Shown here: in pieces, positions 50,696 through 63,137 of the stretch
Layout of the letters: each line of letters starts with the position of its first letter
Numbering within the stretch: the first letter of the stretch is position 1
NCBI GenBank assembly: GCA_001464455.1
Contig: LNEI01000017.1
Coordinates: 62,001-126,000 of the forward strand
Reading direction: 5' to 3'
DNA from: Acidobacteria bacterium Ga0077534
GTDB taxonomy: Bacteria > Acidobacteriota > Blastocatellia > Pyrinomonadales > Pyrinomonadaceae
Length of the DNA: 64,000 nucleotides
Translations under genes and position numbers: made by a program
Notes under the pieces: generated by a model
What the model was told of the DNA's origin: nothing
Seen by the model: only the letters and a program-made list of their open reading frames with translations
Database searches by the model: none

Positions 50696-50740
50696 TGGTG
50701 GCTGGAGAGTGACTTGAACACTCGACCTCGGGGTTATGAA
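50696..50740 (-). tRNA. tRNA-Met(CAU) 3' fragment, probable attachment site remnant
   Basis: On the minus strand: anticodon loop TTCATAA, 3' anticodon stem CCCCG, T-arm GAGTG-TTCAAGT-CACTC, 3' acceptor strand TCCAGCC, discriminator A and encoded CCA. The 5' side of the anticodon stem should read CGGGG but is ACGGA, and no D-arm follows, so homology stops right after the anticodon loop. This is the usual footprint of a tyrosine recombinase attachment site. Confidence 0.8.
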
Positions 50741-50765
50741 TCCGTTGAAATCAAGTTTGGAAATC

Positions 50766-51492: not shown

Positions 51493-52107
51493 CTAATCCG
51501 AATCGAAGAAAGTCGGTGACTTCAATGAGGTTGTTGGTCTAGCAACCAAGCGCGGTTCTTGTTTGTACAGGTCGGTGTGCCGACTCCATCTTAGTGCACT
51601 AAATCCGTGGATCAAGGAGTGTCCAACCCAGCGAGAATCAACAACCTCCCTCTCGTACATTGTCGGTAAATTACAAAGTAATATTTTACCTAGGAACTTA
51701 TACCAATTGTGCTCCGGTATTAACTGATAATAGTATCCGTGAAACGAGTTCCCACTTCGATAGAGCGAGACGGATTCCGAAAACTCATTATCGACAGTAG
51801 AAAGTCGGTCTATGATTCTTGCAGCTGACTTCGTGTTAATGAAGTCGATCATTGGGATATGATAGACGGATTTCTCTCCTTTCAGTCGAACCCTGGAGTG
51901 CAGGGCCAATTCTTGATCATCCAATAGCAAGTCTTTTTGGTAGTCTAACCATGCGGGCGATAGCTCATGAGATGGGACCTGAAAGACCTCTCTCGAAAGT
52001 GTCTCTCCGTAAGCTTTGTAAACGTATCGACTAAATTCGAGCGTCATACCGGGTCGACGAGAGAGCAGGTGTGACTTCAATCTAATAATTGGATGACTCG
52101 GCTTCAT
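51493..52107 (-). CDS. Unknown protein, last gene of the defence-like operon (weak primase-like motifs)
   Basis: A 204-residue protein I cannot assign with confidence. Its centre reads SLYRSGNSFHGYYYQLI, followed by W..FLGKILLCN and DSRWVGHSLIHGFSALRWS. The SxNSFHGYY and LRWS segments recall motifs II and III of archaeo-eukaryotic primase-polymerases, and PMIDFINTK could be a poor motif I, but the normal acidic pair is not obvious. Its ATG overlaps the dGTPase stop by 4 nt (ATGA), so the two are translationally coupled and very likely work together. Confidence 0.65.
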   Translation of the reverse strand: MKPSHPIIRLKSHLLSRRPGMTLEFSRYVYKAYGETLSREVFQVPSHELSPAWLDYQKDLLLDDQELALHSRVRLKGEKSVYHIPMIDFINTKSAARIIDRLSTVDNEFSESVSLYRSGNSFHGYYYQLIPEHNWYKFLGKILLCNLPTMYEREVVDSRWVGHSLIHGFSALRWSRHTDLYKQEPRLVARPTTSLKSPTFFDSD

Positions 52108-53537
52108 TTGTTTTGAACCAGACGAATTCCACTCAAAAGCTGGAACTGTTCCAAAGCATATCGATCAGTCATACCCGAAATGTAATCAACAACTAGATGG
52201 GTCCGAAAATACCATTCGGGCCATTCGGAACGATTGGAAAATTCTTCCAATTGATCCAGATAAACAAGAACATGCTTGTCGGGTAATCGATTAAACAGCC
52301 GCCATTCAACGTCCAAATTCATCCCATTAAGAATTTTGGGGTCGTCTTCACTTTTGACTATCCTTTCAAAATTCTCCGTTGAGCAGTTCAGCAAAGGACG
52401 AAACCTTTCCAGCAATCCCCGCACAATCTGGTTCCCAGCCAACTCCATATTCTCGGATTCGGGGGACCGAAACAATTTCTTTCTGGCGACAGTCTTTAGA
52501 GAATCAAACGCTTTTGATTCGAGGCTATCCTTCTTAAAAAGTGATGCTTTCTCTCCCTTCAATAGGTCGTCTAGGTTCTCAACAGCCAGTTTGGCCGCCG
52601 ATTTTATCGCCTCTTGAGTGTATTTGATCTTAAAAAAGAAAAAATCGCTTTCGTTACAGAAATCGCCCACAGGAATTCTACCAAATGGGAAGTCAACTCC
52701 CGAGCCCGCTTCTTTCTCCCATTCGATTCTCAAATCTCTGAAAAATTCATCCTCACGGATGACTCCCTTCTCGATACCATCCTCAATATCGCTGATGCAA
52801 TAAGCAATATCGTCAGCCGCTTCCATAATGTATGCGAGGATGTAGCGAGACCGAACGGGTATACCAATGGAGCCCTTGATCTGGTCAATAATATGCCGTT
52901 CACACTCGAAATAGCCCGCCTTCTTCGTCAGACCCGACCCCTTCAATTCACTTGGGGATCTGACATATTTAATAAATGAGAGAATAGTTGTGTAGGTGAG
53001 ATTGCACCCATATTCATCACGATCACGTTTAAGTCGCAACAATATTCGAAGACCTTGTGGATTCCCATCAAATTCAAGAAAGTCCTGAGCCAGGGACCGC
53101 ATTCTGCTCGAAGGAGTCGTAGTCTGGGATGCCCTAAATACGGTCTCCCAGTTTTCATTGAACCAGTTCTTAATTGCGCTTTCACCAAAGTGTCCGAAAG
53201 GCGGATTACCGATGTCATGAGCGAGGCAGGCGCATTCAACAGCATAAATAATTGGCAGTTGAAGTGTGTGTTCGATCACTTCAGAATCAATTAATTCCTG
53301 CGTCATTTCATAGGCGATGAGCCTGCCAACGTTCGACACTTCAATGGAGTGGCTTATTCGGTTGCGCACCGCTGCGTTACTCTCAAGTGAAAATACTTGA
53401 GCTTTCTGGGCAAGCCTTCGAAATGCGGGCGAATATACGATCCTCGAACGATCGCTCGCTAGTTCCCTTGCTAGATTCCGCCCGCTTTCCGTAGTTGCTT
53501 TTCGGCGAGTTGAAACAACTATCTCCTCAAGATTCAT
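52104..53537 (-). CDS. dgt: dGTP triphosphohydrolase (HD domain)
   Basis: A 477-residue HD phosphohydrolase close to Escherichia coli Dgt in key motifs: YSPAFRRLAQKAQVF, RNRISHSIEVSNVGR with His63, and CLAHDIGNPPFGHFGE with His107-Asp108; EAADDIAYCISDIEDG supplies the last metal Asp. It converts dGTP to deoxyguanosine and triphosphate, and stand-alone dGTPases are known to block phage by draining dGTP. Here it is the third gene of a four-gene operon with a DNA methylase and a PD-(D/E)XK nuclease, which points to defence rather than housekeeping. It overlaps the 204-aa gene by 4 nt. Confidence 0.92.
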   Translation of the reverse strand: MNLEEIVVSTRRKATTESGRNLARELASDRSRIVYSPAFRRLAQKAQVFSLESNAAVRNRISHSIEVSNVGRLIAYEMTQELIDSEVIEHTLQLPIIYAVECACLAHDIGNPPFGHFGESAIKNWFNENWETVFRASQTTTPSSRMRSLAQDFLEFDGNPQGLRILLRLKRDRDEYGCNLTYTTILSFIKYVRSPSELKGSGLTKKAGYFECERHIIDQIKGSIGIPVRSRYILAYIMEAADDIAYCISDIEDGIEKGVIREDEFFRDLRIEWEKEAGSGVDFPFGRIPVGDFCNESDFFFFKIKYTQEAIKSAAKLAVENLDDLLKGEKASLFKKDSLESKAFDSLKTVARKKLFRSPESENMELAGNQIVRGLLERFRPLLNCSTENFERIVKSEDDPKILNGMNLDVEWRLFNRLPDKHVLVYLDQLEEFSNRSEWPEWYFRTHLVVDYISGMTDRYALEQFQLLSGIRLVQNK

Positions 53538-53559
53538 ATCCTAACTCCATAATTCTCGT

Positions 53560-54219
53560 TTACCCAGTCGCAGAATCGCACTCCTGATCCAGTTTCGCTA
53601 CTTTAAGAACGCTACAAGGCAGAAGGATGTGAAAGATCGTAATGGGCGAGTTTAAGTTCCTAGTGTGTTGACTCGTCCATTCGTGAGGCAGTTCTTCCAA
53701 AACGGAAATCTCGGACAATCCTACCGTAATGTTTAGTTCCGCATCCTCGGCAAACCTTGTTTCAATTTGTTTCTGCCAATATGGTATGTCGTTAGTCTGC
53801 ACATATCCCAACATTCCAGCTTCGGTGCAATCACGGGCGTATTTCCCCCCGTCGTCAATGAAACAACGGAGCCCGCCCTTTCCGCAATAGACACTTGCCG
53901 GATGTGAAGTACTGTTTAGTCGTTTCGCCTCACATGCAAAAAGTGACGATTTAGGACGCTCTCTCCTCTGGAAGACTAAATCGATATACAAAAACCCATT
54001 CTCTACTGTGTAAGGGTCATCTTCATGAACAGCGTAAATGTCAAAACGAGATGGAGTTGCGATATCCTCTAGCCTGTTTTGGATGGCTACGCGAATTTCG
54101 TGGGTTATTTCACGTTCAAGCGCTGGGCTGCCAGAACACACGCTAGAATCATGGTATCCCCATGCGATGAGTCGGTGAACATCGGTCAGGAAATCATACT
54201 GTTCAAACGTGTGGGACAT
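53560..54219 (-). CDS. PD-(D/E)XK nuclease-like protein
   Basis: A 219-residue protein. FLYIDLVFQRRERPKSSLFA followed by CEAKRL gives Asp80 and Glu97-x-Lys99, the PD-(D/E)XK core; an upstream Glu in ALEREITHEI (about 35-41) may be a further ligand. YGKGGLRCFIDDGGKYA follows and has a nuclease-like Gly/Lys pattern. It lies 2 nt after the methylase stop, which suggests that it is the restriction subunit acting with that methylase. No family name recognised; catalytic activity is inferred. Confidence 0.7.
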   Translation of the reverse strand: MSHTFEQYDFLTDVHRLIAWGYHDSSVCSGSPALEREITHEIRVAIQNRLEDIATPSRFDIYAVHEDDPYTVENGFLYIDLVFQRRERPKSSLFACEAKRLNSTSHPASVYCGKGGLRCFIDDGGKYARDCTEAGMLGYVQTNDIPYWQKQIETRFAEDAELNITVGLSEISVLEELPHEWTSQHTRNLNSPITIFHILLPCSVLKVAKLDQECDSATG

Positions 54220-54221
54220 TT

Positions 54222-57134
54222 CTAGCTCCGATGGGAATCTTGACTATTAAGATACGGCTTCTCCATTACTACCTCCGAGAAAATCTCCCCCGCGTCGATA
54301 ACAGCCTGCCGAGGTGTCCAGTCTACTAGCCTGGGTCCTTTACAAACATGAACTCGAGACATCTCGTAGATTCGTAGTCCTTTTTGTACGTAAATCCACT
54401 GATTCCATTCGCTCCTGAGCCTATCGCGTAATCTCATAAACGGCTGGTCGAACTCACGTTGCGAAATCACCTCGACACCCTGCGTTTCATCAGATCCTAC
54501 AAGACTTACAGTGCATATAGCGAGATCATCGCTATGACGCAACTTCACGGTATGACGCACCGTGCTATCGTGATTAAACTGATCCAACTCAAATTTCAAA
54601 CAGAGACCGTATTGACGATACTCTTCGTGTGTCGGTTTTCGTAAAGCTTTCCGCGCAACTTTGCCTTTTGCAAGTTCGAGCTTAATTTTTACGAAGTCCT
54701 CAACGAGCTCTTTCAGATAATGAGGAAGTTGGAACACATGGCCGATCTTCTTATCAATATACTCCCTTATCACGTCCAAAGAATGAACACGATCACGTTC
54801 CCAAGCGGCTACGGTCTTGTGAACTTGTGCCAATGCCTTAATCTGCCTTGTCGTAAATTTCGGCACAGGGACGTCAAGTAAATCGCTTAGGGTTAGAGTA
54901 TTTCTGTCGATGCCCCATGATGCACTAAGAAAAAAGAGCGAATAGCGACATACACTGCTGTTGAGATAAACCGATAAGGCACGAAGATGGTCGGAATCGC
55001 GCTCCGGAGCAGCCAACCCAACCGGTTTGTTCGTAACTACGAAGTCCAAGTCGCTGAAGGCTGCATATGATATCCCAAGCACAAGATGAGGCGCATGAAT
55101 GAGCGCAAGCCCTTTCTTTCCGCCTCGCCTTCTTAGATTAAGCAACTCATCCGGGATAGGTTCTAAATCATCAACTGAAACCTGGAAACGAGCGTCTTGG
55201 TCAATAAGGTGTTGAGGGTTGAATCTCGGAAGCCCTCGCAAGTACGGAGCTTCCTCTGTCTTCTTCTTCAACTGATCTGGCTCATTATCCGCAAGCTTTA
55301 ATTCGACGCCCCGACTTAAACTCCAACCCATATCCTCGGACAATTTACTTAAGCTAATAGGAAAAACTCTCTTAAGTCGTGCCAACGTTCTTTTGTCTCG
55401 CTGGTTGCCCCACATCGCAAGTTTCCAAGTCAAGGTGTTTGACAGCGAAGATGCCTCACTTTCAATACGGCTTATTTCGTCTTCGTTTATCGTAATCATC
55501 CATGCCTTCTTTTTTTCAGGATATTGGCCAAAGGATGAACGAATAAAGGCTTGATTTGCCACTAAAGGGGCATAGTGAACAATCGTTTGGTTTGAATCTC
55601 GTTGTTCAGACAATGTGTAGATGATTGAATAGGCAGGTGCCTCTGCTCTTCGTTCGAACAAGATATACGCAAGATTACAGAAATTAGTAATTCGAAAAAC
55701 CTCGTTGCTTTCAAAAAAGGCTTTGCGATACTTTTCAGAATCGTGATTCGTCAGACTAGTAGCATGCAAAATCAAACCTATAACACCGTCAGGTTTGCAG
55801 AAATCCCTGACTTTCCAACTAAACGCTTCTCCGGCTCGAAAATGAGCCACGGGTTTATCGCTGTTTTCTCTTATCCATTCGAGGATATGGGGTTGATCAG
55901 GCGAATCTCTTTCGATCTTCGTCCAAGGTGGATTACCAATAATCCAGTCAAAATCTAGATTCCTTTGAGCAAACAGTGATTCTTTATCGAAAAAATCGCA
56001 GTGAAAGATTTGCTGGTTATGCAGGGTTGGAAACTCGAAGTCCTTGTGTTGGTTAAGTTCCTTTGGTTCAATATAATCCAGCATCGTCAGAACCAGACTT
56101 AACTCGGCAACGTAACAAGCATCAAGATCTTTCTCGACCCCGAAAACACTCTCTCTTAATATATTCCGAAGTCGTGTGCGAGAAATCTTGCCTCCGGCCG
56201 CTAATAACTCCTTTTCGATCAAGAAGCGATACGCCTGGACCAGAAAAATTCCCGAACCACAGCTGGAATCTAGCACTCTCATGCCTTTTTCCAAGGGCTT
56301 AACAAACTCAACTTCTCGTAAAAGGTAGTCCGCCAAAGGCTCGGGTGTATATACAGCCCCCGTCGCCTCTCCAGTTCCCTTGGCCTTCAAAAACTGCTCG
56401 TAAATTGCAGATAGCGTCTCTACCGGAATGAACGAGAAATCATAGGCCTTAAAATCGAGGTGTAGCTGATCCGTTTCAATATCGTCGCCGCCAAAAACAG
56501 AGGCTACCGTGCTAACGATTTCATCTGAAATAAGACTTATTGAGTTGGCTGGAAGTGGGAATATATCCCCTTTAAAGTAGTCCTCGATGGCGCGGCTTAA
56601 GAGAAGGAGGCCCTCCTTTGTTGCCTCACGCCCAAGGACCTGGGAAATACTAAGGTTCTGTCCTTTGAGCCAACGATCATCAAGAATATTTCGATCCCGA
56701 AGATATCGTATATAAATATACTTTCCAATCAGAGAATGAACCAGCGGTAACGAAACCTCATCTGAAAGGTTCAGACGATGAATAAGACCCTTCTCTAAGG
56801 CCGATAAGTTCTTGAGCAAACGCCGGTCAACACGTCGGCTCGAATCAATCGCACCAGAACGTTCGCGCCAAATTCGCCCGCTATCAATTGATTCAGCATT
56901 GAATGGAGTCAGTCGGGTCGCTGAGCTTGGATCAAGATCCTCAAAAAGATTCGATATTAGGTCAATTGTATCAAGCAAACCAACAGATTTGTCGTCATCG
57001 TCGAAATCAAATCCCGTATAAACATGGACCCTGCTTTGTAACAGAACCATCAAGAACGGAGCATTGCCTAAATTCCATATCTTTTTGTGAATCGCATGTG
57101 CTTCGTCGCTATTATTTGCGTCCGCTACGTACAC
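54222..57134 (-). CDS. Eco57I-type N6-adenine DNA methyltransferase
   Basis: 970 residues from the first usable start (GTG 57134), but homology-like sequence continues in frame upstream to 57341. Helical N-terminal part, then the SAM motif VLDSSCGSGIFLVQ (288-301) and the catalytic NPPW (401-404), preceded by AVYTPEPLADYLLRE, as in gamma-class adenine methylases of type IIG/Eco57I enzymes. The C-terminal half (about 560-970) should hold target recognition. No nuclease motif is visible inside it; the separate PD-(D/E)XK gene follows after 2 nt. Expected role: host-DNA marking in a restriction-type defence operon with the dGTPase. Confidence 0.88.
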   Translation of the reverse strand: MYVADANNSDEAHAIHKKIWNLGNAPFLMVLLQSRVHVYTGFDFDDDDKSVGLLDTIDLISNLFEDLDPSSATRLTPFNAESIDSGRIWRERSGAIDSSRRVDRRLLKNLSALEKGLIHRLNLSDEVSLPLVHSLIGKYIYIRYLRDRNILDDRWLKGQNLSISQVLGREATKEGLLLLSRAIEDYFKGDIFPLPANSISLISDEIVSTVASVFGGDDIETDQLHLDFKAYDFSFIPVETLSAIYEQFLKAKGTGEATGAVYTPEPLADYLLREVEFVKPLEKGMRVLDSSCGSGIFLVQAYRFLIEKELLAAGGKISRTRLRNILRESVFGVEKDLDACYVAELSLVLTMLDYIEPKELNQHKDFEFPTLHNQQIFHCDFFDKESLFAQRNLDFDWIIGNPPWTKIERDSPDQPHILEWIRENSDKPVAHFRAGEAFSWKVRDFCKPDGVIGLILHATSLTNHDSEKYRKAFFESNEVFRITNFCNLAYILFERRAEAPAYSIIYTLSEQRDSNQTIVHYAPLVANQAFIRSSFGQYPEKKKAWMITINEDEISRIESEASSLSNTLTWKLAMWGNQRDKRTLARLKRVFPISLSKLSEDMGWSLSRGVELKLADNEPDQLKKKTEEAPYLRGLPRFNPQHLIDQDARFQVSVDDLEPIPDELLNLRRRGGKKGLALIHAPHLVLGISYAAFSDLDFVVTNKPVGLAAPERDSDHLRALSVYLNSSVCRYSLFFLSASWGIDRNTLTLSDLLDVPVPKFTTRQIKALAQVHKTVAAWERDRVHSLDVIREYIDKKIGHVFQLPHYLKELVEDFVKIKLELAKGKVARKALRKPTHEEYRQYGLCLKFELDQFNHDSTVRHTVKLRHSDDLAICTVSLVGSDETQGVEVISQREFDQPFMRLRDRLRSEWNQWIYVQKGLRIYEMSRVHVCKGPRLVDWTPRQAVIDAGEIFSEVVMEKPYLNSQDSHRS

Positions 57135-57297
57135 AACTACGTCGGGAGGTAGAACGTTCTGAGTTTCGGGACTGCGACGAAAGGTATATAAACCTTTTAT
57201 TTGAGCTTGCGATGCCGATCGAAGCAGATGCGATTCGATATGTTGAGGGTGAACGTGTTGCGTAGCATCTTGACTGATCGCAAAATAATTTTCACTT

Positions 57298-57759
57298 TCA
57301 GTATAGCTTAGCGTCGTTAGTAGGTTCTCTAAATCTATTATTTACGACTAGATAAGATGCAAAATAGTATTTTTTTCTGTACCTTTCTGACGTGACAAGA
57401 TTGACTTCAAATCCGTCGTGCAACTCTGCGAAGGCAGGATAAAAACGTGAACTAAAAAGAGAGTTTAAAACAAGCTTTCGGCGGCACCTAATGGTGGAAA
57501 TCGGATTGTTAGTCAAGGTATAGTTTGCTAAAAACGCCAAGACTATATTCTCCTTCATCCCGATCATCTGGACGGCCAGGCTGAAAGCGTCGACCGGGTC
57601 GTCGTGTGGGGCGTTTGGGAAGTGGCAGACTTCGTCGACGAAATCGTTTATCCACGCTCCCGCAACCAGGACGCCCTTTCCAGCCTCACCACGGTTGGCC
57701 CAGGCGAGGAAATCTCTCGACACTTCGTCATCCCCCGGGCGGCTACCACTGGACCTCAA
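57298..57759 (-). pseudogene. Phage terminase large subunit C-terminal remnant
   Basis: The first half (57554-57759) matches the C-terminal RNase H-like nuclease end of terminase large subunits: AGAWINDFVDEVCHFPNAPHDDPVDAFSLAVQ, given here as WINDFVDE, FPNAPHDD and VDAFSLA, with the catalytic-site Asp residues. The rest of the terminase is missing upstream (stop at about 57810), and downstream the frame runs into unrelated sequence ending in DAKLY. So this is a prophage scar adjoining the defence operon, not a functional gene. Confidence 0.6.
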
Positions 57760-57854: not shown

Positions 57855-58132
57855 ACCGCCCTTGCCTAAGCCAGTGGTAAACGATAGCGCAGGCTACCCT
57901 TGTCGCAGGTTGAGGAAGCGTTTAGCAACCGAAACCCGAAGCGGCCGGAAAAGCTGGTTTAGCTTTTCCGGGTTGCCCAAAGGCGGCTGCCTGGGCAAAA
58001 GCAGAGTCGCCTCGTCTCGCCCTCATCAAATTACTTTGATGAGGTATCGGTAAGGTGAGAATTAGTGGCTACTAATTCTTGGCGAGACGGCGAGGCGACA
58101 AGGGTAGCCTGCGGTAAGCTGGCAAGGGCGGT
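57855..58132. ncRNA. Highly structured 278-nt element, candidate noncoding RNA
   Basis: Outer stem: ACCGCCCTTGCC (57855-57866) with GGCAAGGGCGGT (58121-58132), 12 bp perfect. Second stem 57889-57906 with 58095-58112, 18 bp perfect. Inside: GGTTG/CAACC (57908-57930); an 11-bp hairpin with GGTTT loop (57945-57971); TTGCCCA/TGGGCAA (57973-57998); a 9+7-bp helix 58006-58021 / 58081-58099 that competes with the second stem; a 10-bp hairpin with TTAC loop (58021-58044); a 9-bp hairpin with GGCT loop (58058-58079). A known RNA family is not recognised. Strand unknown; a MITE or DNA cruciform is the alternative. Confidence 0.6.
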
Positions 58133-62347: not shown

Positions 62348-62965
62348 TCACCAACCCTGCGGTTTGTGAAACGTGCCATTGGCGTCGGTTAGCGGAGTTG
62401 AAAACTGGCTCGCCGCGAGTACGCCGGGCCTGATCTTCTTGATTGGAACGCCGGCCCTCTGGAGATGAAAACTCGGATTCTTCTGGGGATTGGCTAGAGC
62501 GATGGGGAAACCTAGTTCGTCGCGAACGATTAAGATCGCTTCGAGTAGATCGGAATCGTTAGATATTACGACGGCTCCTTCGTAGGCTTTCTTGTAAGCG
62601 TCGTGCAGTAAATGCACGGCCAGGTTCACGTCAGAGCCTTTTTCTTCGGTTTTTATGACGTTAGCGTATTGTTGGGGAACAGTGCCCGCGACTAGCATCC
62701 GAACAGGTTTTGTCAGGAAGCGGCCTTCAATAATTTCAGCCTCCGGTCTTGTACCTAAGGCACGGAAGTAAGTTTGCTGGCGGATTGGTTGATCGGGGTC
62801 GCTCGGTCTTGCGGATACCCTGGCTGTAAAATATTTGACCTTCTCAACCTGATACTGGGGATAAAGTAGCTGGCACATCTTTACGATATCGAGCCACTTG
62901 TACTGCGTGTTCTTCAGTGCCCCGTAGTAGAGATTAAAGCCGTCGATATAGCAGAATATTTTCAT
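62348..62965 (-). CDS. NYN-domain (LabA/PIN-like) ribonuclease
   Basis: A 205-residue protein starting MKIFCYIDGFNLYYGAL. NYN/DUF88 acidic residues are all present: YIDGFN (Asp8), KGSDVNLAVHLL near 115 and ISNDSDLLEAI near 140. The fold is that of PIN-like metal-dependent RNases. ATG 62965 is chosen because family members begin at this point; the in-frame extension to 63031 crosses the hairpin at 62990-63019. Such genes are frequent cargo of mobile elements; the target RNA is unknown. Confidence 0.85.
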   Translation of the reverse strand: MKIFCYIDGFNLYYGALKNTQYKWLDIVKMCQLLYPQYQVEKVKYFTARVSARPSDPDQPIRQQTYFRALGTRPEAEIIEGRFLTKPVRMLVAGTVPQQYANVIKTEEKGSDVNLAVHLLHDAYKKAYEGAVVISNDSDLLEAILIVRDELGFPIALANPQKNPSFHLQRAGVPIKKIRPGVLAASQFSTPLTDANGTFHKPQGW

Positions 62966-62989
62966 GGGATTGAGAAAAGCTAAAAAGCA

Positions 62990-63019
62990 GAGGGCGAAGC
63001 AATTTCTCACTTCGCCCTC
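62990..63019 (-). terminator. Terminator-like hairpin just upstream of the NYN gene
   Basis: 10-bp perfect stem GAGGGCGAAG/CTTCGCCCTC with a 10-nt loop; on the minus strand it is followed by TGCTTTTTAGCTTTTC, 24 nt before the NYN ATG. Either an end for upstream transcription or an attenuator. Confidence 0.6.
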
Positions 63020-63137
63020 GCACCCACCCATCGAAACGAGTGGGGGAATATGCCCTAATACTAACGTACATCTAATTTTTGGTCAATACCTGGGCAATCG
63101 TACCGCAAAGCAACAAGGATAGCCCAGCAAATAAAAC

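What the first reader, a model, noticed from the sequence alone, without database searches (positions are those of the whole stretch)
51493..57341. Four-gene defence-like operon: adenine methylase, PD-(D/E)XK nuclease, dGTPase and a coupled unknown protein
Seen: four minus-strand genes with gaps of 2 nt and 22 nt and a 4-nt ATGA overlap, inside a tRNA-bounded island. Known: adenine methylases with partner nucleases act in restriction, and dGTPases deplete dGTP in phage defence. The combination of both strategies plus a conserved-looking 204-aa partner is not a system I recognise. Inference: host marking plus DNA cleavage, with nucleotide starvation as a second layer.
Basis: partly seen in the sequence, partly recalled or inferred. 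Interest (0 to 1): 0.88.

Follow-up and report, generated by a model that had tools for sequence, protein, structure and literature searches.

The report
dGTPase paired with a primase-like protein
The four-gene cluster is two neighbouring modules, a restriction-type DNA methylase plus nuclease-like pair and a rare recurring pair of a dGTP-destroying enzyme with a primase-like protein, which looks like a phage defence whose enzyme is controlled by a nucleotide-handling partner.

Summary
Four minus-strand genes are there as described (gaps of 2 and 22 nt, a 4-nt overlap), but they are not one conserved four-part system. (1) The 204-aa "unknown" is an AEP-like protein (archaeo-eukaryotic primase fold, Pfam PF24387). 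A genome scan gave 8 further loci (Pantoea, Betaproteobacteria, Acinetobacter x2, Sedimenticola, Vibrio x2, Aliidiomarina); in 8 of 8 it directly follows a dGTPase, and none has a homologue of the methylase or 219-aa protein. (2) The methylase and an E-x-K protein form a separate pair, kept in 5 of 6 methylase relatives read. The dGTPase is not the genus's housekeeping gene: a full match in 1 of 41 genus genomes (its own), plus one weak hit. In 3 further PF24387 loci the setting differs: a patatin phospholipase, a SIR2/DprA/PRTase cluster, and a phage-like contig with neither. The family keeps one motif-I Asp, the motif-II His, an Asp and an Arg, but lacks the other motif-I acid. Best reading: an antiviral dGTPase controlled by a nucleotide-binding or nucleotide-making AEP-like partner, working like Clover but with an unrelated regulator fold. 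Defence, and the direction of control, are inferred.

The parts
51493..52107 (-). AEP-like protein (PF24387, archaeo-eukaryotic primase 1D-like), 204 aa; likely regulator of the dGTPase
   Evidence: PF24387 E=1e-30, 106.7 bits vs cut-off 27; AlphaFold2 model pLDDT 81 from 9 sequences; best structural matches are AEP primases, RepB' Z 9.9
52104..53537 (-). dGTPase (E. coli Dgt-like HD triphosphohydrolase), 477 aa; likely effector
   Evidence: NF003429 424.4 bits; PADLOC dGTPase 234.7 bits; H63, H107, D108, H116, E119, D242 invariant in the 8 aligned AEP-linked dGTPases
53560..54219 (-). E-x-K (PD-(D/E)XK-like) candidate nuclease, 219 aa; partner of the methylase
   Evidence: homologous to the genes directly 3' of N-6 methylases in L016, L018, L019 (tblastn E 3e-9, 3e-4, 2e-9) and L058 (1e-6); E97-x-K99 invariant in 6 aligned; fold not established
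54222..57341 (-). N6-adenine DNA methylase (type IIG-like); start codon uncertain: GTG at 57134 or a rarer codon near 57341
   Evidence: N6_Mtase, Eco57I; REase_MTase_IIG 202.5 bits over residues 8-528; open frame 1039 codons; homology to 57332
50696..50742 (-). 47-bp 3' half of tRNA-Met: near attachment site of the integrative element
   Evidence: exact repeat at contig 150836-150882, inside an intact tRNA-Met at L005 4836-4912 next to a tyrosine integrase at L005 3718-4821

Best explanation
The locus is two modules placed head to tail, probably in one transcript, just inside one end of a tRNA-Met-integrated element of about 38 kb. Module A (54222-57341 and 53560-54219) is a restriction-type methylase plus a separate E-x-K nuclease candidate. 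Module B (52104-53537 and 51493-52107) is an effector, a dGTPase that would starve phage replication of dGTP, paired with an AEP-like protein that controls it. Proposed control: the AEP-like protein binds or makes a nucleotide or short-DNA ligand in its conserved pocket (H83, D88, H123, D157, R173) and so keeps the dGTPase off until infection changes the nucleotide pool or exposes replication intermediates. Shown by computation: the pairing, the predicted fold, the conserved residues, the accessory status of the dGTPase, and other partners (a patatin, a SIR2 cluster) in other loci. Inferred: one transcript, antiphage function, the direction of control (restraint rather than activation) and the ligand.
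For: Pairing: dGTPase directly 5' of the AEP-like gene in 8 of 8 loci of the genome scan plus the window; overlaps of 4, 8 or 11 nt, or a 5-nt gap in Pantoea. Fold: PF24387; model with RepB', archaeal and human primases on top; first Foldseek hit 2ATZ/HP0184 (E 5e-3), listed in PMC8065100 among AEP structures with bound nucleotide (passage seen). Pocket: S71, H83, D88, F89, G119, S121, H123, D157, W160, L172, R173, S175 invariant in 6 members that share 25-37% identity with the window protein. Other partners: patatin and SIR2-DprA-PRTase. Setting: IetA, IetS and a helicase in L012, IetS and a type III-like enzyme in L011; integrase in L009 and, by similar translation, L010. Accessory dGTPase: full match in 1 of 41 genus genomes, its own; a second, distant copy in 6 of 7 other hosts. 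AEP-linked dGTPases on one side of one branch, support 82/75. Precedent: Clover, whose CloA dGTPase is restrained by a dinucleotide made by CloB (PMC12265719).
Against: No defence was measured. PF24387 members lack one of the two motif-I acids (M86, or L86 in Pantoea, where S-2L PrimPol has E85; D88 kept), so synthesis of a signal is doubtful. CloA's p3diT arginines R29 and R34 are not conserved (A/L/I and S); only R38 is, and that Arg also aligns in E. coli Dgt. The AEP-linked dGTPases are closest to E. coli Dgt, which per PMC12186491 (passage) needs no allosteric activation. Tree support for one origin is weak (82/75). The Pantoea dGTPase carries an in-frame stop, and neither the Pantoea locus nor L008 shows a defence gene nearby. 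All 8 other dGTPase-linked loci came from searches seeded with that subfamily, so 8 of 8 overstates the link for the family as a whole: over all 12 loci read it is 9 of 12. No Foldseek PDB hit of the model reaches E 0.001.
Confidence: 0.5

Rival explanations
1. The AEP-like protein is a catalytically silent sensor or scaffold: it binds dNTPs, primer ends or phage replication forks and acts on the dGTPase by direct contact, making no product. (One of two forms of the best explanation.)
For: Only one motif-I acid remains while H123, R173 and the Gly/Ser of motif II stay invariant; first Foldseek hit is 2ATZ/HP0184, named in PMC8065100 among AEP structures with bound nucleotide.
Against: D88, H123 and D157 are all kept down to 25% identity, more than simple binding may need; H83 is also invariant and might replace the lost acid; changing partners is easier with a diffusible signal than with direct contact.
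Confidence: 0.4
2. The AEP-like protein makes a short nucleotide (such as a 5'-triphosphorylated dinucleotide, the first product expected of a primase) that switches the dGTPase, as CloB does in Clover. (The other form of the best explanation.)
For: Clover precedent: p3diT is a DNA dinucleotide (PMC12265719); the family sits with different effectors, as expected of a signal system.
Against: Loss of one motif-I acid; the p3diT pocket of CloA is not conserved.
Confidence: 0.3
3. All four genes act as one system, as the first reader proposed (host marking, cleavage and nucleotide starvation).
For: Tight spacing of all four genes on one strand.
Against: None of 8 other dGTPase-AEP loci has a homologue of the methylase or 219-aa gene; none of 6 methylase relatives read has a dGTPase or AEP-like homologue nearby.
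Confidence: 0.08
4. The dGTPase-AEP pair is a nucleotide-quality or mobile-element replication function, not defence.
For: AEPs commonly serve plasmid and phage replication (established knowledge); a distant member lies in a phage-like contig (L021).
Against: The window protein matches no other Pfam domain such as a fused helicase; the 9 pairs lie in different settings, several beside defence genes or integrases.
Confidence: 0.15

Closest known systems
Clover (CloA dGTPase + CloB nucleotidyltransferase), PMC12265719
   Same: Two-gene operon of an HD-domain dGTPase and a small nucleotide-handling partner, associated with defence; the paper's figure legend also sorts CloB homologues by adjacent effector.
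   Different: Partner is AEP-fold (PF24387), not Pol-beta; the dGTPases are nearer E. coli Dgt than the 9P8S-9P8V chains (401 vs 268 bits at best), which I take to be CloA (the preprint prints 8P9S-8P9V and 9P8W; residue numbering fits with an offset of 2); CloA R29 and R34 are not conserved.
Anti-phage dGTPase (NF041026; S. putrefaciens dGTPase of Tal et al. 2022 as cited in PMC12265719; the link of the two is recalled)
   Same: dGTPase described as anti-phage.
   Different: Window protein scores 173.1 bits against a cut-off of 400; here there is a co-conserved partner.
E. coli Dgt
   Same: Best solved relative of the AEP-linked dGTPases (4x9e, E=7e-119); NF003429 over its cut-off.
   Different: Chromosomal gene between mtn and degP with no AEP-like neighbour (L040); branches outside the AEP-linked group.
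PF24387 AEP-like family (Pfam: archaeo-eukaryotic primase 1D-like)
   Same: The 204-aa protein is a member, 106.7 bits vs 27.
   Different: Pfam names the fold; no function or dGTPase link was found in the papers searched.
Type IIG / type II restriction methylases
   Same: N6_Mtase/Eco57I methylase followed by an E-x-K protein in 5 of 6 relatives read: 4 plasmids (best-ranked 4 of 97 matching records) and 1 of 2 genomes of the window's phylum.
   Different: The nuclease candidate is a separate gene and matches no Pfam, PADLOC or NCBIfam family; one relative (L059) has no such gene beside it.

Membership tests
Clover | HD-domain dGTPase with intact HD and HE residues | tested here: met
   H63, H107, D108, H116, E119, D242 invariant in 8 AEP-linked dGTPases
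Clover | Partner is a Pol-beta superfamily nucleotidyltransferase (CloB) | tested here: not met
   Partner matches only PF24387 AEP-like; AEP structures on top
Clover | p3diT pocket arginines R29, R34, R38 | tested here: not met
   Aligned positions are A/L/I, S and R: one of three kept; the chain taken as CloA is inferred from numbering and the preprint
Clover | dTTP-activated, p3diT-inhibited dGTPase | not testable with these tools
   needs enzyme assays
AEP-like PF24387 | Score over the curated cut-off | tested here: met
   106.7 bits vs 27
Archaeo-eukaryotic primase superfamily, canonical active site | Motif I with two acids, motif II His, motif III Asp (residues as given in PMC8065100) | tested here: not met
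   One motif-I acid only (M/L86, D88); H123 and D157 kept; motif assignment is mine, by sequence; no residue-level superposition was available
Anti-phage dGTPase NF041026 | Score over the curated cut-off | tested here: not met
   173.1 bits vs 400
dGTPase equivalog NF003429 | Score over the curated cut-off | tested here: met
   424.4 vs 405
PD-(D/E)XK nuclease (219-aa protein) | D...E-x-K in a PD-(D/E)XK fold | tested here: inconclusive
   E97-x-K99 invariant in 6; single-sequence model pLDDT 38; PDB profile search gave only designed 'pizza' proteins at E 0.04 or worse
Type IIG restriction-methylase | Methylase with fused nuclease domain | tested here: inconclusive
   PADLOC IIG match covers residues 8-528; no nuclease domain matched in the protein; a separate E-x-K gene follows

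The most novel reading that the evidence does not exclude
PF24387 AEP-like proteins are an unassigned class of immune regulator: primase-fold enzymes or sensors that, like the nucleotidyltransferases of CBASS, plug into different effectors (dGTPase, patatin phospholipase, SIR2/PRTase) and switch them through a nucleotide or short DNA: a further way, beside the Pol-beta enzyme CloB, of controlling bacterial immunity by nucleotides.
Probability: 0.3. Interest if true: 0.85.

Novelty: new variant of a known kind. Interest (0 to 1): 0.6.

Why it matters
Nucleotide depletion is an established antiviral strategy, and Clover showed that it can be held in check by a dedicated nucleotide signal. A second, unrelated regulator fold beside the same kind of effector would mean this logic arose more than once. 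Because AEP-fold proteins make or bind the very molecules that change during phage replication (dNTPs, primer ends), the pair makes the question of how a cell keeps a dNTPase off until infection testable in a two-gene system.

Tried and rejected
Four-gene system: rejected on synteny. Housekeeping dgt: rejected. p3diT signalling by a CloA orthologue: not supported. Relatives of the AEP-like protein among viruses: none in the phages collection for the window protein or for its phage-contig relative; none in viral contigs with the single sequence, one distant member with alignments. Single-sequence viral-contig scans with the 219-aa protein and the dGTPase found no relatives, though such scans reach close relatives only; tblastn does find dGTPase homologues in 14 phage records. 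The structure of the 219-aa protein was not obtained usefully. No library of predicted cellular structures was on hand; the BFVD search gave one match at E<=0.001, an uncharacterised protein of Sulfolobales Beppu filamentous phage 1. The structural tool warns that best Z of 7-8 is common for models without a clear match; the top row here is 9.9. Sub-threshold PF24387 hits in two Moraxellaceae genomes (22-23 bits, stops inside) were not counted; the surroundings of one (L054) were read and the hit lies inside a long unrelated open frame, the other (L052) was not read. The B. subtilis control rings below the cut-off in each family search; it was not followed. A distant DNA search of E. coli genomes with the patatin-AEP pair gave none. 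The promoter scan found fewer sites than shuffles (5 vs 9.1) and the terminator scan 12 vs 6.6, none placed as a clear operon end. Dropped rows: host second copies L035-L037 did not enter the dGTPase tree because the script picked no open frame for them; Pantoea is not in the dGTPase alignment A3 because of its in-frame stop, but is in the tree. Papers: PMC12265719 abstract, 12 of 37 found passages, the mechanism section and the data statement; PMC10853773 and PMC12839542 found passages only, no dGTPase and no AEP in either; PMC7824862, PMC8065100 and PMC12186491 found passages. Prior art that could not be read: Nicastro et al. 2023, cited in PMC12265719, tried under the DOI I recalled and not held; it may already mention such pairs.
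Full report
Observation. The window carries four minus-strand ORFs at 51493-52107, 52104-53537, 53560-54219 and 54222-57134 with a 4-nt overlap, a 22-nt gap and a 2-nt gap. Pfam, NCBIfam and PADLOC name the dGTPase and the methylase, and Pfam names the 204-aa protein as AEP-like, PF24387, E=1e-30; the 219-aa protein matches nothing there. The methylase open frame reaches 57341 (1039 codons) and homology reaches 57332, but the first standard start codon in the frame after the upstream stop is the GTG at 57134.

Setting. ARAGORN finds no tRNA in the window, but 50696-50742 is the 3' half of a tRNA-Met, repeated exactly at contig 150836-150882, where the full tRNA-Met(CAT) stands. A tyrosine integrase lies beside it, and next to that a gene with type IV coupling-protein domains.

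Two modules. A pattern scan of the genome collection (84,980 species, by its description) seeded with the window and Pantoea AEP-like proteins returned 8 loci, one of them the Pantoea record itself. In 8 of 8, and in the window, a dGTPase lies directly 5' of the AEP-like gene. In none of the 8 does tblastn (E<=1e-3) find the methylase or the 219-aa protein; L008 ends 0.5 kb past the AEP-like gene. The loci are not all independent: the two Vibrio proteins are 90% and the two Acinetobacter proteins 73% identical, so about seven lineages with the window. Conversely, of 97 plasmid records that match the methylase I read the four best-ranked; each methylase is followed by a 214-237-aa gene. Three of these four match the window's 219-aa protein by tblastn at E 3e-4 or better; the fourth, L017, matches through L019 (1e-81). 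Of two other genomes of the window's phylum with the methylase, one (L058) has the 219-aa homologue next to it and the other (L059) has none. So the pair is kept in 5 of 6 relatives read, and tblastn finds no dGTPase or AEP-like homologue in any of the 6 loci. E97-x-K99 is invariant in the 6 aligned 219-aa homologues.

The dGTPase is accessory. Of 41 genus genomes the window's own has the full match; one other has a 19-bit fragmentary hit. Of seven other host genomes six carry another, much more distant copy. In a tree of 18 dGTPases the nine AEP-linked ones lie on one side of a branch with support 82/75, next to the E. coli, Pseudomonas, Pseudoalteromonas and Aliarcobacter enzymes. The partner is the exception among dGTPases: 230 plasmid records match the dGTPase (E<=1e-10), while 1 of 72,556 plasmid records matches the window AEP-like protein (E<=1e-5), though a divergent partner would be missed by that search.

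The AEP-like protein. The AlphaFold2 model (9 sequences, pLDDT 81) matches AEP primases: RepB' Z 9.9, archaeal and human primases about 8-9. By Foldseek the first hit is 2ATZ/HP0184 (E 5e-3) and RepB' the second; none reaches E 0.001. In six members from four kinds of setting the invariant residues are S71, H83, M86, D88, F89, G119, S121, H123, D157, W160, L172, R173 and S175; Pantoea has Leu at 86. PMC8065100 (passages) lists the conserved AEP residues in S-2L PrimPol as Y63, E85, D87, T112, K115, H118, D146 and R157. By sequence I map E85/D87 to M86/D88, the T112-H118 stretch to S/T118-H123, D146 to D157 and R157 to R173. One motif-I acid is therefore missing. The mapping is mine and was not checked by superposition.

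Other partners. A family search in 296 Vibrionaceae found three members over the cut-off, two of them already known. The third (L053) lies directly 3' of a patatin-like phospholipase, with a 1-nt overlap, and no dGTPase homologue was found in that 11-kb locus. A tblastn with that protein found a Mycolicibacterium plasmid in which a PF24387 gene (161.7 bits) follows a same-strand SIR2-DprA-PRTase run, 162 nt after the PRTase. A distant member (33 bits) stands in a phage-like contig without a dGTPase homologue. Thus of 12 loci read, 9 have the dGTPase, 1 the patatin, 1 the SIR2 cluster and 1 neither; each of the last three settings rests on a single locus. The family is rare: 1 of 297 in the window's phylum, the window's own genome; over the cut-off 1 of 369, 3 of 296, 2 of 299, 1 of 197 and 1 of 190; the centre genome, already known, is among the hits of each, and apart from L053 no new locus turned up.

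Defence context. L012 holds IetA, IetS and a helicase; L011 holds IetS and a type III-like restriction enzyme. L009 has an integrase 5' and, 3', a QueC-like gene, a nucleoside deoxyribosyltransferase-PfkB protein and a type II-like methylase; L010 looks similar by translation. L014 has transposase-like genes 5' and L013 a helicase-like gene, both judged from translations only. The Pantoea pair lies among metabolic genes, and L008 beside a TSCPD-domain gene, with no defence gene seen.

Mechanism and known systems. Clover (PMC12265719; abstract, found passages and two sections read) is the closest analogue: CloA, a dTTP-activated dGTPase, is inhibited by p3diT made by CloB, a Pol-beta enzyme. 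Here the partner fold differs and CloA's p3diT arginines R29 and R34 are replaced, so this is not Clover, though it may work like it. I hold the regulator role at about 0.5, with a silent sensor or a signal synthase as its two forms, and the antiphage role as inferred. No paper describing a dGTPase-AEP pair turned up; the library lacks most subscription papers and one likely relevant 2023 survey.

Noticed in passing
L002 17421-19425 (contig 143421-145425, same element): A JAB-like gene (weak, 20.7 bits, under its cut-off of 25) overlapping a ThiF/E1-like gene (90.3 bits): a possible ubiquitin-like module on the same element.
   Followed up: partly
window 62348-63031: NYN-domain protein matching PADLOC candidate HEC-09 (134.7 bits) and phrog_7929 (207.6 bits), on the same element.
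   Followed up: no
window 57298-57759: Open frame with a weak match to the end of a phage terminase large subunit (phrog_12171, 34.4 bits; TIGR01630 21.9 bits, under its cut-off), just upstream of the methylase: possibly a remnant of a phage gene.
   Followed up: no
window 57855-58132: Nested inverted repeats: arms 57885-57906 and 58095-58116 (22 nt, 95% complementary) and 57855-57866 and 58121-58132 (12 nt, 100%), in the gap between the methylase side and the next gene.
   Followed up: partly
L007 10430-11959 (Pantoea sp. SOD02 plasmid): The AEP-linked dGTPase gene is interrupted by an in-frame TAA, so the pair is probably decaying there.
   Followed up: partly
L009 9094-11556 and L010 9054-11519 (Acinetobacter): A nucleoside deoxyribosyltransferase-PfkB protein, a QueC-like protein and a nitroreductase-like protein in a row 3' of the dGTPase-AEP pair (for L009; L010 by translation), a possible further defence locus.
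   Followed up: no
L008 5937-6635: TSCPD-domain gene 34 nt upstream of the dGTPase in a betaproteobacterial MAG; the domain is known from ribonucleotide reductases (recalled).
   Followed up: no
L016 3330-3794, L017 3297-3773, L019 3333-3809, L059 10461-11024: A gene of 154-187 aa, HTH-like by eye, overlaps the start of the methylase in these relatives; tblastn of the plasmid versions found no convincing counterpart in the window.
   Followed up: partly
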